A DNA stretch of 64,000 bases from Woodsholea maritima DSM 17123 (GCF_000382325.1 NZ_KB908057.1:240783-304782); one strand, 5' to 3'; positions 5,363 through 10,863 are shown, numbered from the stretch's first letter. Numbers and translations: made by a program. Notes: a model not told the origin generated them from the letters alone.

Positions 5363-5380
5363 CTGTGAGCCAGATCACAG
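5363..5380. promoter_or_regulatory. Perfect CRP-type operator upstream of the TIR gene
   Basis: CTGTGAGCCAGATCACAG matches the consensus TGTGA-N6-TCACA exactly and the symmetry extends one base further on each side. Its centre is 64 bases before the chosen start of the TIR gene. A CRP-family regulator with the recognition-helix motif RETVSR is encoded at the other end of the same locus (9693-10397), so autonomous regulation is plausible. No convincing -10 element could be assigned. Confidence 0.65.
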
Positions 5381-5435
5381 TGCTTGTCTCAATAGCGCAT
5401 GTTGTGAAACAGTATGCAGGGCCATGGGGGTGGAC

Positions 5436-7256
5436 ATGACACAATATCGCGCATTCATCAGCTACAACCACAAAGACCGCACATTTGTGCGATGGCTTTT
5501 GGAGCGCTTAGAGCGTTATCGCCTGCCAAAATCCTCGCGCGGTGAGGGGCAGAATGTGGACGAAGACGGGCGCATGGGCCGGATCTTTTGCGATCGCGAA
5601 GAATTTGTTGCATCCGGGAATTTAAGTGAGGCCGTGCAAGCTGCACTGGGTCAATCACAAGCCTTGATCGTTGTCTGCTCTAAGACATCGCGCCAATCAA
5701 AATGGGTCAATGCCGAGATTGCGATGTTTCGCAGCCTTCATCCTGACCGCCCCATTTTCTGCGCTATCGTGCCCGATGCCCGAGATGAAGACGACGTCTT
5801 TCCTTATACCCTTTTGCAGGAAGAAGGGCACGAACCTCTCGCCGCTGATTTCCGAAAGGGTAAAGATGGGAAACGCTTAGCCCTCCTCAAACTGGTCGCT
5901 GGCCTCGTTAGTGTCCCCCTAGATGGGCTGGTGCAACGTGAAGCCCAACGCCGACAGCGCCGCGTGACCTTCGTCACGCTCTTTTTTGCAGTGATCGCGT
6001 TTATGATGGCTGGATTGGCGGTTCAGGCGATCACGGCGCGCCAAACCGCAGAGCGCCAGCGTTTTGAAGCGGTTAAAGCGCGCCGGGATGCGGAGGATTT
6101 AGTGGGCTTTATGTTGGGGGAGCTGCGCGAGCAGTTGGAGCCTGTCGGGCGCTTGGATGCCTTAAGCGGTGTTGGGTATAAAGTCCTGGATTATTATGAA
6201 GGTATAAGTCAAAGCCATCTTGATGATGAGCAATTAGCGTTTTTCGCAAACGCGCTCAGGCTTTCTGGGGAAACAGCGTATCGGGCCAGCGATCTCACCT
6301 CCGCTCAGCGCCAATTCGAAGCGGCCAGCGAAGTGACGGCTGAACAATTGCGCCGTGCTCCCGGGGATGGAGCCAAAATCTATAATCACGCGCAAAGCGT
6401 GTTCTGGTTAACAATTATAGATCGCCAAGAAGGGCGGATGGCCGAAACTTTAGAGGGCTTCCAGCGCTATTATGATATGGCGGTTGAGTTGGTCGCGCTT
6501 GACCCAGAGCGCCTCGACTGGCGCATGGAGCTCGCTTATGGCGCATCTAATCTGGGCACAACTTATTATGACATGGGCGATTTTTCCCTGGCTAATTCGT
6601 ATTTCGAAACAGGGGGTGAGGAATTCAGTCTGATCGCAGCAAGTTATTTGCGTCATAGTGAAAGCGAAGCCTTCGCCAGTGCTCTACGCGAGCTGGCAGA
6701 TAATTATGCGTGGCAATCTGATGCACAAAAAGGGTTGGGCGATTATGATGTCGCCATTGAGATGCGCTGTCGTCAATTGTCTATCTATGAAGATCTCAAT
6801 GAGAATACTGCGAATATTGATTGGCGCGTTAAGCGCAATCAGTTGAGCGCAACCTTGTCTTTGGCCGTGGCGCTTATTGAAACTGAACGTCACAGGCAGG
6901 CGCTTTCCCTGTTGCATCAGGCGCAAAGTCTTGTGGATCAGCTTTATGAGCATGAACCCGGGAACGCGCTATGGGGTATTTTGATTTATAGCCATCAATT
7001 GCGCATTTTAGAGAGTGAAGTTGCGCTGGGGCGTCGTGCACAGGCCCAGACGGCATTGGAGCGTTTGGACTTTTTAAAGCGGTCTTTGGTTCTACCCTCC
7101 GAAAGCTCTCCTGATATGATACGGCGCCTGGCTCAGGAAGGTCAGATCCGGCAAAATCTAACCCATCTTATGAGCCAAGTTAATGTTGAGCCTTTAGCTT
7201 CAGGAAACTATTTTGAGCAAGATATTGACGTGTGCCAAAGTGTTACACAGGAGTAA
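5436..7256 (+). CDS. TIR domain - transmembrane - helical repeat protein
   Basis: A 606-residue membrane protein. Residues ~3-115 form a bacterial TIR domain: box 1 RAFISYNHKD, then IFCDREEF, then SQALIVVCSKTSRQSKW-VNAE. Glu94 in WVNAE sits where NAD-cleaving TIR domains carry the catalytic glutamate. A single membrane helix follows at ~177-198, then a charged coiled segment and a long alpha-helical C-terminal part (~240-560) with paired helices resembling degenerate TPRs. TIR domains act as protein scaffolds or as NADases in immunity; which applies here is unknown. Two ATGs compete (5424, 5436); 5436 is chosen for the GGGGGTGG before it. A perfect CRP-type site lies upstream, and the next gene starts four bases after the stop, so it opens a three-gene operon. 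Confidence 0.85.
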   Translation: MTQYRAFISYNHKDRTFVRWLLERLERYRLPKSSRGEGQNVDEDGRMGRIFCDREEFVASGNLSEAVQAALGQSQALIVVCSKTSRQSKWVNAEIAMFRSLHPDRPIFCAIVPDARDEDDVFPYTLLQEEGHEPLAADFRKGKDGKRLALLKLVAGLVSVPLDGLVQREAQRRQRRVTFVTLFFAVIAFMMAGLAVQAITARQTAERQRFEAVKARRDAEDLVGFMLGELREQLEPVGRLDALSGVGYKVLDYYEGISQSHLDDEQLAFFANALRLSGETAYRASDLTSAQRQFEAASEVTAEQLRRAPGDGAKIYNHAQSVFWLTIIDRQEGRMAETLEGFQRYYDMAVELVALDPERLDWRMELAYGASNLGTTYYDMGDFSLANSYFETGGEEFSLIAASYLRHSESEAFASALRELADNYAWQSDAQKGLGDYDVAIEMRCRQLSIYEDLNENTANIDWRVKRNQLSATLSLAVALIETERHRQALSLLHQAQSLVDQLYEHEPGNALWGILIYSHQLRILESEVALGRRAQAQTALERLDFLKRSLVLPSESSPDMIRRLAQEGQIRQNLTHLMSQVNVEPLASGNYFEQDIDVCQSVTQE

Positions 7257-7259
7257 ATT

Positions 7260-7901
7260 ATGGCTCAGGACTTTCTTGATCACGCGAATGCCGAGTCTGA
7301 TCTTTTAGATTCTAATCCTAATGTGACTTTAGAGAATACGCAGATCGTTTTGATTACGATGATTGAGGGTGAGTTTTCAGTTCACTCGATTGACAGTATT
7401 GATAATCCTGATGCTGCCCTCCCAAATGGTTTGTTCAGTTTGGAAACCATTAATGAAATCAACGCTGCCTTTGATGCCCTCGTGAATGTCTTTGTGCCTC
7501 AAACGATTGATCCGCTTGAGGAATTTTCAGAGTTTTTGGCTGCGGGGCTTCAAGACTTTAATATTGCCCCACCCGTTGAGATGGCGAGCCCGCTTGATCT
7601 CATCATCTATCGTCCGACTAAGATCGTGTTCCACTTACATTATGCGAGCTGGTATTTCGCTGAAGCTCGCGTTCGCTTGAAAGAGGGTACTCCGATTGGT
7701 GTGTTTTCTGACCTGGAATGGGTGGGGACAAGCCAGAAAACCTTCTCGGTAATTGATAGTTGCTCAGATGCCACCAAGCCGGGCGAAAGTGTTGAGCATC
7801 CCTATGCTATGTATGTGGTGGTTGCGCAGATGGGGGGGATTGAGCCCCAAGAAACCGTCATGATTATTGACCCAAAAGTAGAAAATAACGGGGGCGGTTA
7901 A
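7260..7901 (+). CDS. Uncharacterised protein between TIR and cyclase genes
   Basis: I do not recognise this 213-residue protein. It is acidic, has no signal peptide or membrane helix, and splits into two parts: residues ~1-95 with predicted helices around LETINEINAAFDALVNVF, and ~110-205 with alternating hydrophobic patterns typical of beta strands (KIVFHLHYASWYFAEARVRL, then PYAMYVVVAQMGG). It ends in IIDPKVENNGGG, a glycine-rich tail. The start lies four bases after the TIR stop, with GGAG just upstream inside the TIR gene, so it is very probably co-translated with it. It may be the sensor or substrate of the locus, but that is only a guess from position. Confidence 0.75.
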   Translation: MAQDFLDHANAESDLLDSNPNVTLENTQIVLITMIEGEFSVHSIDSIDNPDAALPNGLFSLETINEINAAFDALVNVFVPQTIDPLEEFSEFLAAGLQDFNIAPPVEMASPLDLIIYRPTKIVFHLHYASWYFAEARVRLKEGTPIGVFSDLEWVGTSQKTFSVIDSCSDATKPGESVEHPYAMYVVVAQMGGIEPQETVMIIDPKVENNGGG

Positions 7902-7927
7902 ACCTCTTCCCTTTAGGCTGATAGATA

Positions 7928-9709
7928 ATGTTATCTTTGGAAGATATAGACTTACTTCTTCGACGAGGTGACATTTGTTCTGCCTATGATGCATGTCGTG
8001 ACGCGTTAAATGAGATGAATGAAGACTGGCGATTTGCCCATCGCTCTATTCTTTGTCTCATTCGTTCAGGCGCGCTGGAGCGGGCCTTTTTAGAATTCTC
8101 AGCACTTAATGAGGATTTGAAGAACGCTCACGAAGATATGCTGGTTTTGAACGGGCGGTTGTTAAAGGCGGTGGCGTTAGAAAGCGCGCCGCCGCACCGC
8201 GCGCGTTTGGCTCGCTTGGCCAGTCACGCCTATGGCCGCGTTTTTCAACGCACGGGTGGACTTTATCCTGGCGTTAATCAGGCCAGCTTATTGGCGCTCG
8301 CAGGCGATTATGATCAGGCAAAAGGCCTCGCCGGTCATTTATTGGCTCATGGGTTTGAAGAGCCGGATTATAATCCAGAACGATATTATTACTGGGCGAG
8401 TTTAGCTGAATGCTATGGTCTGTTGGGCGATGAGCCGGCCTTTTGCCGCGCCTTGCATCGTTCGATTGATGTCGACCCGACCCATTATGGCGCGCGCGCG
8501 GTGACACTTAATCAGCTTGAGTGGGCGTTACAGGAGCATCCCCTGCTTTTACGCCATCTTGATGCCTGCCGGGGACCGGCTTGCCTTCATTTCGCAGGCT
8601 CAATTTTTCCTGATCTAGGTGTGGGTGCGCTCGATGAGCATGCGCGCGCAAAGATCTATGACGATGTTCGTGCATGGGTGCGCCAGTATAATATCGGCTT
8701 TGCCTATGGGGCGCTGGCGGCGGGCGCGGATATGTTGATCGTCGAAGCTTTGCTGGCTGAGGGCTGCGAAGTATCGCTGGTTTTGCCTGCTCCCACAGGG
8801 GTGTTTTACGATTATTCCGTTGCCCCTTATGGCGAATATTGGGTCAAACGCTTTGAAGCCCTGATCCGTCAGGTCGAATCGATCCGTTGGATGCATGAAG
8901 GCCGTGAAGGTTTGAGCGCTGCAGGCATTGCCTATGCCAATGAAGTCGCAATGGGATTGACGCATTTGCGAGCCCAGGCCTTAGGCGTTAAGGCTCGACA
9001 ATTGATTTTGAGCCGTGATCGCTCTGATGAGCAGTCCTTCTCTTATTTGTGTCATGCGCGCTGGACGCAAACCGCTATGGCGAGCCAGGTTTGGCCTTTG
9101 AAGATTGATCCCGCGTCAACGCCAGCGCTTCCCCCCGCGCCGCTTCCGCGCCCGCACTCCGCATTACGCGCTATGATTTTTGGCGATGTACGCGGCTATA
9201 GCCAGCTCAGTGATGATCAAATCCCGTTATTTGTTGAGGGGATATGGCAGGCGTTGGTGATGTGTTATCGCGATTTGACCCATCCGCCGCGTTTTGAAAA
9301 TAGCTGGGGCGATGGATTGTTTTTAGTCTTTGAGGACGTCGAAGATGCTGCGCAAGCGGCAATGGCCCTTCAGGCCTGTTTTCGCGATCTCGATTTAGCT
9401 CAGCTTGGTTTGCCAGAACATTTAGCTTTGCGTTTAGGGGTGCATTATGGGCCTGTGCATGAGTTGGAAGACCCCGTTTTGGGACGTAAAAATGTGTTTG
9501 GCGCTCAAGTGGTTACCGCGGCACGCATTGAACCTTTAACCCCGCCGGGGGCCATTTATGTCAGTGAAGCCTTCGCTGCGACCTTAACGCTTTTAGGTCA
9601 AGGCCAGTATCGTTGTGCTTATATTGGGCGCAATATTCTTCAAGGGCACGGTGATATGGGGCTTTATACCCTTCGCCCGGCGTTCAATAGCGTCAGTCGA
9701 TTGAATTAG
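7928..9709 (+). CDS. TRAFs-binding / SLOG-like / class III nucleotide cyclase fusion
   Basis: A 593-residue soluble protein with three parts. Residues ~70-210 are helical and match the MAP3K TRAFs-binding/TPR type (GGLYPGVNQASLLALAGD, then YYYWASLAECYGLLGD). Residues ~218-375 form a Rossmann-like SLOG/LOG-type domain (HFAGSIFPD, AYGALAAGADMLIVEALL). Residues ~413-585 form a class III cyclase: the metal aspartates are kept (Asp420 in FGDVRGYS, Asp462 in WGDG) and Arg533 is kept (AARIEP). However, the base-selecting Lys position is Asn458 and the usual Asn of the VN.AAR motif is Val529, so the product nucleotide is uncertain and full activity is not assured. It ends the TIR operon and overlaps the convergent CRP-family gene by 17 bases. 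Confidence 0.85.
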   Translation: MLSLEDIDLLLRRGDICSAYDACRDALNEMNEDWRFAHRSILCLIRSGALERAFLEFSALNEDLKNAHEDMLVLNGRLLKAVALESAPPHRARLARLASHAYGRVFQRTGGLYPGVNQASLLALAGDYDQAKGLAGHLLAHGFEEPDYNPERYYYWASLAECYGLLGDEPAFCRALHRSIDVDPTHYGARAVTLNQLEWALQEHPLLLRHLDACRGPACLHFAGSIFPDLGVGALDEHARAKIYDDVRAWVRQYNIGFAYGALAAGADMLIVEALLAEGCEVSLVLPAPTGVFYDYSVAPYGEYWVKRFEALIRQVESIRWMHEGREGLSAAGIAYANEVAMGLTHLRAQALGVKARQLILSRDRSDEQSFSYLCHARWTQTAMASQVWPLKIDPASTPALPPAPLPRPHSALRAMIFGDVRGYSQLSDDQIPLFVEGIWQALVMCYRDLTHPPRFENSWGDGLFLVFEDVEDAAQAAMALQACFRDLDLAQLGLPEHLALRLGVHYGPVHELEDPVLGRKNVFGAQVVTAARIEPLTPPGAIYVSEAFAATLTLLGQGQYRCAYIGRNILQGHGDMGLYTLRPAFNSVSRLN

Positions 9710-10397
9710 GATTGGTTTGCCCGGCCCATAAAGCATCGGGCGAGATTAAGATCATTCTCTTACCCTCGCGCCTAATCAGGCCATGGCGCTCTAGCGCATT
9801 GACGGTTCGTGACACGGTCTCACGCGTGGAGTGTACGCGTTTGGCAAGGTCCGTCATAGAGGGGCTGGATGTGATCACGAGGTGGTTATTGTCTTGATTA
9901 GGTGAATAATTGGCTTCACGAAGAAGTTCTGCAAAGACACGTCCCGTCGCGGATAATGCAGATAATTCATACATCCGGGTTGTGGTGCGCGCCACCCGAC
10001 GTGCCAAAAGTCGGTTGAGCCATAAAGCAAAATGACCTTCAGTTTCAACATAGTGTAAAAAAACGGCTGAAGGCAGGCGTAGGACTTTTAATTGTGTTTG
10101 GGCCTTTACATAATTTGCCCGGGGTTGATCATTCAGGGCCGCCATTTCACCAAAAATGTCCCCCGCTTTTAGATCATCGATCCAGATTTCATCTCCCCCG
10201 CGTGAGTAAATAATTGCGCGGGCTTTGCCAGATAAAATGAAGAAGACGCCATCATTTTTATCGTCTTGCTGTAAGGCCAATTCGCCAGGTTTTATCTTCT
10301 GAAGGCTGGATGCATTTACTAAAGCGTTCAAAAAAAGAGGGCTAGAGGCAAGGTCAGGAAAGGCCTGACTTAGCTCATTGGACAAGGGTGCATTCAT
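9693..10397 (-). CDS. CRP/FNR-family transcription regulator with cyclic-nucleotide pocket
   Basis: A 234-residue regulator. Residues ~20-125 are a cyclic-nucleotide-binding beta roll with a phosphate-binding cassette FGEMAALNDQPRA: Glu84 and Arg93 are the two residues that hold the ribose-phosphate in CRP and protein kinase A, which argues for true cNMP binding rather than an FNR-like sensor. No N-terminal FNR cysteines are present. Residues ~175-225 are a winged helix with RETVSR, close to the RETVGR of CRP that reads TGTGA. A consensus CRP site stands before the TIR gene in this locus. The 3' end overlaps the cyclase gene tail to tail by 17 bases. The ATG at 10397 is the only good start; GGGGGAA precedes it. 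Confidence 0.9.
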   Translation of the reverse strand: MNAPLSNELSQAFPDLASSPLFLNALVNASSLQKIKPGELALQQDDKNDGVFFILSGKARAIIYSRGGDEIWIDDLKAGDIFGEMAALNDQPRANYVKAQTQLKVLRLPSAVFLHYVETEGHFALWLNRLLARRVARTTTRMYELSALSATGRVFAELLREANYSPNQDNNHLVITSSPSMTDLAKRVHSTRETVSRTVNALERHGLIRREGKRMILISPDALWAGQTNPNSID

Positions 10398-10491
10398 TTT
10401 TTCCCCCGGCGCGAACCTTGCTCACGCATAACATGGTTAAGAATCAAATATATCGAAGTTAAACGCGCAGGGGAATGTGTTTGGCTTTAGA

Positions 10492-10863
10492 TTAGTGTTG
10501 TTCGGCCGCGTCAGAAAACCAGTTGAGGGCCTCGACGAGGGTCTCGAACCGCTCACAGCTATGTCCGCTGCGGCGAAAGCCTATGCAAACCAGACTAGCC
10601 GGAGCGCGCTGGGTTTTGCGATAGACGATGGCGATTTGAAAGGCAGGTAGGTTTTCACCGACTTCGATATATTTTTCCATAATCGCGTCAGGCGCTTCGA
10701 GATATTCACACAGGCTGATGTCTAACAACAAACGGCGTAAATCGCTGGCTTCAAGGCGCGGCTTAATCGCACGCACGGCCGCTTCAACTTCGTCCATGGA
10801 TTTTTGTCCGCGCGCGGTGATGTAGATCGCGTTGTGATCGTCAAGCTTGTCGAGATGAAGCAT
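10492..10863 (-). CDS. STAS/SpoIIAA-like protein
   Basis: A 123-residue cytoplasmic protein with an alternating strand/helix pattern like SpoIIAA-like (STAS superfamily) proteins: an opening hairpin (NAIYITARGQKSMDEVEAAV), a central strand LRRLLLDISLCEY that in STAS proteins leads to the ligand or phosphorylation loop, and AFQIAIVYRKT. A phosphorylatable serine in the usual position is not obvious. It lies upstream of the CRP-family gene on the same strand with a 94-base gap, and may be co-transcribed with it; the link to the TIR locus is only by position. Confidence 0.65.
   Translation of the reverse strand: MLHLDKLDDHNAIYITARGQKSMDEVEAAVRAIKPRLEASDLRRLLLDISLCEYLEAPDAIMEKYIEVGENLPAFQIAIVYRKTQRAPASLVCIGFRRSGHSCERFETLVEALNWFSDAAEQH

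What the first reader, a model, noticed from the sequence alone, without database searches (positions are those of the whole stretch)
5363..10863. Self-contained TIR / nucleotide-cyclase / CRP-type regulator locus
Seen: one operon codes a membrane TIR-repeat protein, an unknown protein and a TRAFs-binding/SLOG-like/cyclase fusion; a CRP-family gene with an intact cNMP phosphate-binding cassette overlaps the operon tail to tail; a perfect CRP operator stands before the TIR gene. Known: TIR domains can be NADase effectors and cyclic nucleotides can trigger them in anti-phage systems such as Pycsar. Inference: cyclase, CRP-type sensor and TIR form one circuit in which a cyclic nucleotide induces, or is sensed to control, a TIR effector. 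I know of no described system with this exact set.
Basis: partly seen in the sequence, partly recalled or inferred. Interest (0 to 1): 0.85.

Follow-up and report, generated by a model that had tools for sequence, protein, structure and literature searches.

The report
Conserved TIR–cyclase–CRP signalling locus
This is a conserved bacterial gene set in which an enzyme that should make a cyclic nucleotide and a regulator that should sense it have kept or lost their key residues together, with the regulator's binding sites before and inside a gene for an immune-type TIR protein; the wiring looks real, but what it responds to is untested.

Summary
In detail: TIR-TM-TPR gene (5436-7256), small gene (7260-7901), TPR-S/SLOG-like/cyclase fusion (7928-9709), convergent CRP gene (9693-10397), perfect operator (5364-5379). 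The gene at 10492-10863 is not part of it. The set recurs in Maricaulis, Kordiimonas and (CRP divergent) Caulobacter. In 61 genomes intact cyclase metal residues always accompany an intact CRP phosphate cassette (32) and loss accompanies loss (29); the trees support only one to three independent switches. In one lineage the degenerate cyclase protein is fused to the CRP. Operators lie upstream of TIR in 13/13 window and Maricaulis loci, and a codon-embedded second operator lies inside 26 TIR genes. The "unknown" gene is a conserved partner with a C-terminal Asp-Pro motif and a model resembling self-cleaving SO1698. Cyclase and CRP are thus very probably one pathway acting on the TIR operon. 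It is neither Pycsar nor Thoeris. Defence is unproven: 18/19 Maricaulis species carry the locus, in one chromosomal context where examined, and CRP sites elsewhere suggest it is not self-contained. Parts of this kind were probably listed by Burroughs and Aravind 2020 (not readable here).

The parts
5364..5379 (.). CRP-type operator TGTGA-N6-TCACA upstream of the TIR gene (centre about 64 bp before ATG 5436)
   Evidence: Exact match; exact YGTGAN6TCACR site within 500 bp upstream of TIR in 13/13 window + Maricaulis loci, against 2.4% of random 520-bp windows; also in some Kordiimonas-type loci
5436..7256 (+). TIR-TM-TPR protein, 606 aa; TIR domain residues 7-141, putative catalytic Glu94, TM 177-195, TPR region behind it
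   Evidence: Pfam TIR_2/ThsB_TIR over cut-off; Glu94 kept in all 50 sequences in which the position is present
5963..5978 (.). Second, intragenic CRP-type operator CGTGACCTTCGTCACG, embedded in codons R-V-T-F-V-T at the TIR/TM boundary
   Evidence: Exact YGTGAN6TCACR at the same place and in the same frame in 26 TIR genes; log10 product of codon-choice probabilities -37.8, not corrected for relatedness, median 0.042 per gene; also in Kordiimonadaceae-type loci
7260..7901 (+). Middle 'DP-tail' protein, 213 aa; C-terminal beta-sandwich, conserved Thr199 and Asp204-Pro205, nine residues after Asp204 (codons 7869-7874)
   Evidence: A protein with Asp-Pro near its C-terminus lies between TIR and cyclase genes in 70/80 loci with room for a gene, background 47/810; relatives match PF20301 pNTSase1; model matches SO1698 aspartic peptidase, Foldseek E 3e-5, model pLDDT 62
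7928..9709 (+). TPR-S (residues 20-122) / alpha-beta SLOG-like (215-391) / class III cyclase (411-585) fusion, 593 aa; metal-binding Asp420 and Asp462
   Evidence: Pfam; AlphaFold pLDDT 90.6; Foldseek to Rv1900c and other cyclases; Asp420, Asp462 invariant in 37 aligned sequences
9693..10397 (-). CRP-family regulator, 234 aa: cNMP-binding domain with Glu84/Arg93, C-helix Thr-Thr, recognition helix RETVSR
   Evidence: Pfam; PDB relatives include E. coli CAP and Vfr; alignments

Best explanation
The locus is a sensor-to-transcription circuit built round a TIR protein. The TPR-S/SLOG-like part of the third protein receives an intracellular cue (inferred; perhaps the NAD+-derived product of the TIR enzyme itself) and gates its class III cyclase. 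The cyclase makes a cyclic nucleotide, which is the ligand of the neighbouring CRP protein (supported by their shared evolution). The CRP then binds the conserved operators upstream of and inside the TIR gene and changes transcription of the TIR-middle gene-cyclase operon, giving feedback on a potentially toxic NADase, and probably also acts on a few other genes (sites shown, binding inferred). The paired upstream and intragenic sites are more easily read as repression, looping or roadblock control than as simple activation (inference). The middle protein is a conserved partner with a possibly self-cleaving Asp-Pro tail (inference). Where the cyclase has decayed, the CRP no longer reads a nucleotide and is probably driven by direct contact with, or fusion to, the sensor protein (inference).
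For: Quartet conserved across Maricaulis, Kordiimonas, Caulobacter and others. Cyclase Asp420/Asp462 and CRP Glu84/Arg93 agree in 61/61 genomes, 32 intact and 29 lost, and in all 98 rows of a larger, partly redundant set. CRP-cyclase tandem without TIR in Zavarzinia-type loci, both intact. CRP fused to TPR-S/SLOG-like with dead cyclase in six f5 genomes. Only class III cyclase and only cNMP-binding/HTH_Crp protein found in this genome. Operators conserved upstream (13/13) and inside TIR (26 genes). DP-tail gene in 70/80 loci. TIR catalytic Glu conserved. CRP recognition helix RETVSR, the CAP-type pattern that reads TGTGA (established knowledge of CAP), in the window and most relatives.
Against: The shared loss reflects only one (forced by starred branches in two trees) to three (best tree of another) independent switches, so it has no statistical force by the independent-pairs test. 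The canonical cyclase transition-state Asn is V/A/T/S in this family and the base-specifying Lys is N/D/E in most members, so activity and product are unproven. TIR-to-cyclase signalling is inference only. No promoter match was found near the operator and the operator lies from -72 to -455 from the TIR start, so activation versus repression is open. Caulobacter-type loci lack this operator pattern.
Confidence: 0.6

Rival explanations
1. Housekeeping or stress signalling rather than immunity: the CRP is the genome's cyclic-nucleotide regulator with a small regulon, and the TIR protein is one regulated output or a metabolic NADase. (This and the next rival are about purpose and could hold together with the wiring above.)
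For: 18/19 Maricaulis species carry the locus, with conserved chromosomal flanks in the 12 loci compared; 8 of 18 relaxed operator sites in this genome are between genes, including before a response regulator followed by acetyl-CoA synthetase, a histidine kinase, an outer-membrane protein and a glycosyltransferase.
Against: Patchy outside Maricaulis (41/119 genomes of the family, 67/398 of the order, 26/385 of the class); a TIR with ThsB-like profile, variable middle proteins and an occasional added trypsin-like protease look like conflict-system parts; the dispersed sites are untested and their total is not far above chance (about 12 expected against 18).
Confidence: 0.35
2. Anti-phage defence with abortive outcome: infection is sensed, cyclic nucleotide rises, CRP switches the TIR operon up and NAD+ is depleted.
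For: TIR catalytic Glu conserved; analogy with Thoeris, Pycsar and conflict systems (PMC7159879 describes cNMP cyclases and CRP-like factors in such systems).
Against: No defence-system match beyond TIR and generic cNMP-binding hits; near-core in Maricaulis; transcription is slow for abortive infection; flanks in the window are ordinary cobalamin and transport genes.
Confidence: 0.4
3. Cyclase and CRP are mere neighbours: shared loss is one ancestral accident, and the CRP senses something else.
For: As few as one independent switch is forced by well-supported branches; 21 intact cyclase homologues have no CRP in the stretch examined.
Against: Fusion of CRP with the degenerate cyclase protein; convergent, divergent and tandem arrangements that all keep the pair; no discordant case in 61; every dead-cyclase row in the trees has a CRP.
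Confidence: 0.12

Closest known systems
TPR-S conflict systems predicted by Burroughs and Aravind 2020 (J Bacteriol; recalled from memory, not held)
   Same: TPR-S domain, pNTSase1-related middle gene and TIR; the recalled abstract speaks of a TPR scaffold thought to sense NAD+-derived signals and of cyclic mononucleotide signalling.
   Different: Whether that paper lists this exact quartet could not be checked.
Pycsar (PycC + cNMP-binding effector such as PycTIR)
   Same: Class III cyclase and TIR in one locus, cNMP-binding domain next door.
   Different: TIR has no cNMP-binding domain; the sensor is a transcription factor; no PycC match to the cyclase.
Thoeris (ThsB TIR + ThsA SIR2-SLOG)
   Same: TIR of ThsB-like profile; a SLOG-like domain as possible receiver.
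   Different: No SIR2; the SLOG-like domain is fused to a cyclase.
Cyclase-CRP pairs such as CyaB/Vfr or Cya/CAP
   Same: A cyclase makes the CRP ligand; CAP-type operator.
   Different: Here both genes are locally paired and the cyclase carries TPR-S/SLOG-like domains and sits in a TIR operon.
SO1698 / DUF1888 self-cleaving protein (PDB 3n55, 3nji)
   Same: Predicted beta-sandwich and an Asp-Pro nine residues from the C-terminus (SO1698: Asp116-Pro117 of about 125, from knowledge).
   Different: No sequence match; cleavage untested.

Membership tests
Pycsar | PycC-type pyrimidine cyclase | tested here: not met
   No PADLOC match for the cyclase protein at E <= 1; product not assayed
Pycsar | Effector with its own cNMP-binding domain | tested here: not met
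   TIR protein has only TIR, TM and TPR; the cNMP-binding domain lies in the CRP
Thoeris | ThsA with SIR2 and SLOG | tested here: not met
   No SIR2 domain in any gene of the locus
Thoeris | ThsB-type TIR | tested here: met
   PF08937 34.3 bits, cut-off 21.2; PADLOC ThsB weak
TPR-S conflict systems | TPR-S domain | tested here: met
   PF20308 38.2 bits, cut-off 27.6
TPR-S conflict systems | pNTSase1 partner gene | tested here: inconclusive
   Window gene 12.6 bits against cut-off 25; same-position relatives reach 46.6 bits, E 4.5e-12, and E 1.7e-44
TPR-S conflict systems | Response to an NAD+-derived signal | not testable with these tools
   Needs biochemistry
CRP/CAP regulators | cNMP-binding domain with phosphate cassette Glu/Arg and CAP-type recognition helix | tested here: met
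   Glu84, Arg93, RETVSR
Class III nucleotide cyclases | Two metal-binding Asp residues and the fold | tested here: met
   Asp420, Asp462; Foldseek to Rv1900c, TM 0.85 over the target
Class III nucleotide cyclases | Canonical base-specifying Lys/Asp and transition-state Asn (not kept in every active member) | tested here: not met
   Asn458, Asn522 and Val529 in the window protein
DUF1888 self-cleaving peptidases | Sequence family membership | tested here: not met
   No Pfam DUF1888 match, no PDB sequence match
DUF1888 self-cleaving peptidases | Fold and C-terminal Asp-Pro | tested here: inconclusive
   Foldseek E 3e-5 on a model of pLDDT 62; Asp-Pro present

The most novel reading that the evidence does not exclude
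A TIR system in which the messenger relay ends in transcription: a TIR-derived or other cue is turned by a TPR-S/SLOG-gated cyclase into a private cyclic nucleotide read by a dedicated CRP that binds one operator before and one codon-embedded operator inside the TIR gene, with a self-cleaving Asp-Pro protein as further output; in daughter lineages the nucleotide step was lost on both sides at once and replaced by direct protein contact or fusion.
Probability: 0.3. Interest if true: 0.85.

Novelty: new variant of a known kind. Interest (0 to 1): 0.62.

Why it matters
Nucleotide messengers in TIR systems are known to trigger effectors directly. A conserved locus in which the messenger seems to act through a transcription factor on the TIR gene itself would link cyclic-nucleotide regulation and TIR biology, and the natural series (intact pair, pair with both sites lost, fused protein) lets one ask how a signalling step is dropped in evolution. 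The uncharacterised middle protein becomes a testable candidate for Asp-Pro self-cleavage.

Tried and rejected
Single-protein scan of genome contigs found nothing; the alignment scan worked. Independent-pairs statistics could not reach significance because there are too few switches. Literature searches did not reach the key 2020 paper. Rejected: the SpoIIAA-like gene as a fifth component (no homologue in relatives); Pfam's label 'predicted novel nucleotide synthetase' for the middle gene as a functional statement (the model gave a beta-sandwich and nothing here supports synthesis); base specificity from residues 458/522 and the CRP C-helix (E458 goes with Leu, D/N/K458 nearly always with Thr, but this follows lineage). 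Promoter scan near the operator was empty. The 98 rows and the 80 loci contain some genomes twice (G handles and named contigs), so the 61-genome figure is the one to quote.

Full report
What is there. Between cobalamin genes and a solute-binding protein the window holds a three-gene operon and a convergent regulator gene. TIR-TM-TPR protein: TIR_2 49.6 bits, TM helix at 177-195, putative catalytic Glu94. Small protein of 213 aa. A 593-aa protein with TPR-S, an alpha/beta domain and a class III cyclase, modelled at pLDDT 90.6, cyclase part closest to Rv1900c. The alpha/beta domain fits SLOG-like topology and remembered motifs, but no sequence search confirms the name. CRP protein with an intact phosphate cassette and a CAP-type recognition helix, closest in the PDB to CRP/FNR regulators, with CAP and Vfr among the matches. 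The operator at 5364-5379 is perfect. The gene at 10492-10863 has no counterpart in relatives.

Recurrence. Cyclase-protein homologues were found in 41/119 genomes of the family, 67/398 of the order and 26/385 of the class (the class search used an alignment, the others a single protein). In 26 family loci TIR, cyclase protein and CRP nearly always stand together. In the order, Caulobacter-type loci keep the set but with the CRP divergent upstream of TIR. Named genomes include Maricaulis, Kordiimonas, Caulobacter, Hellea and Sphingomonas echinoides. Nine loci have TIR next to the cyclase gene without CRP, and these also have no gap gene. In Zavarzinia-type loci CRP and cyclase protein form a tandem without TIR.

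Cyclase and CRP change together. Scoring the two metal Asp of the cyclase and the Glu and Arg of the CRP cassette in 61 genomes gave 32 intact/intact, 29 lost/lost and no mixed case. The dead forms fall in three well-supported clades: one in the window's family, one in f3/f4/f17, and one in f5 where a degenerate CRP (HTH kept) is fused to the N-terminus of the TPR-S/SLOG-like/degenerate cyclase protein. On the trees this takes two to three switches, of which starred branches force one or two, so the pattern is clean but rests on few events. Intact cyclase homologues without CRP exist (21); dead ones in these trees always have a CRP. The simplest reading is that the cyclase's product is the CRP's ligand, and that once it is gone the two proteins act by contact (inference).

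Operators. In the window and 12 Maricaulis loci, 13/13 have an exact YGTGAN6TCACR site within 500 bp upstream of TIR, against 2.4% of random windows; Hellea-type loci have sites about 65 bp before the CRP and cyclase genes instead. A second exact site lies inside the TIR gene at one place in 26 genes, window 5963-5978. Given each gene's amino acids and codon usage the median chance of this is 0.042; the unadjusted log10 product is -37.8, which overstates it because the genes are related. Kordiimonadaceae-type loci have it too, including both TIR genes of one locus. It is absent from Caulobacter-type, Hellea-type, protease-bearing and CRP-less loci. This is hard to explain without CRP binding there, and suggests repression, looping or roadblock control, which is inference.

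How private is the circuit. This genome has one class III cyclase and one protein with both cNMP-binding and HTH_Crp domains at the thresholds used; the other cNMP-binding protein is patatin-like. Of 18 relaxed sites in the genome (about 12 expected at equal base frequencies), 8 lie between genes, counting the window's, some before a response regulator followed by acetyl-CoA synthetase, a histidine kinase and surface proteins. So the CRP may have a small regulon; 'self-contained' is not shown.

The middle gene. It is variable in sequence, but 70/80 loci with room for a gene encode a protein with Asp-Pro near the C-terminus between TIR and cyclase genes (background 47/810 ORFs; some genomes counted twice). 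Relatives match PF20301, and all but one of the PF20301 hits in the order lie at these loci. The window protein's model (pLDDT 62) matches only SO1698 well, E 3e-5, a protein that by my knowledge cleaves itself at an Asp-Pro nine residues from its end. This is a lead, not a membership.

Function. Defence is possible but not shown. The locus is present in 18/19 Maricaulis species, with conserved flanks in the 12 compared, which is unusual for a mobile defence system, and it is patchy elsewhere. A TIR-derived signal acting on TPR-S/SLOG is suggested only by the recalled literature on TPR-S. Some relatives add a membrane trypsin-like protease beside the middle gene, which recalls the nuclease-protease pairs acquired by immune systems (PMC12799240, abstract seen).

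Verdict. The cyclase-CRP-operator wiring is well supported by comparative evidence, the TIR effector step and defence role are inference, and the system is best called a new variant of the TPR-S/TIR conflict-type loci, with the caveat that the key 2020 paper could not be read.

Noticed in passing
window 10492-10863: SpoIIAA-like small protein (E 0.13) beside the CRP gene; not conserved in related loci.
   Followed up: partly
L043-L045, L048, L049, L051, L053, L120: Variant loci carry a membrane-anchored trypsin-like peptidase gene beside the DP-tail gene between TIR and cyclase genes.
   Followed up: partly
L152 12590-16080: Kordiimonas locus with a second TIR gene and DP-tail gene downstream; TIR genes there carry upstream and intragenic operators.
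   Followed up: no
L136 4349-6688: Cytochrome P450 fused to cNMP-binding domains, divergent from a cyclase-protein homologue.
   Followed up: no
G000:C2:90220-90235 (L064 2221): Perfect CRP-type site upstream of a response-regulator gene followed by acetyl-CoA synthetase: possible further CRP target.
   Followed up: partly
L065 77-1819 (G000:C4): Patatin-like protein with an N-terminal cNMP-binding domain, the only other PF00027 protein found in this genome.
   Followed up: partly
L082-L094 and named Caulobacter loci: Caulobacter-type cyclases have Glu at position 458 and their CRPs have Leu where other lineages have Thr in the ligand-binding helix; lineage and specificity cannot be separated.
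   Followed up: partly
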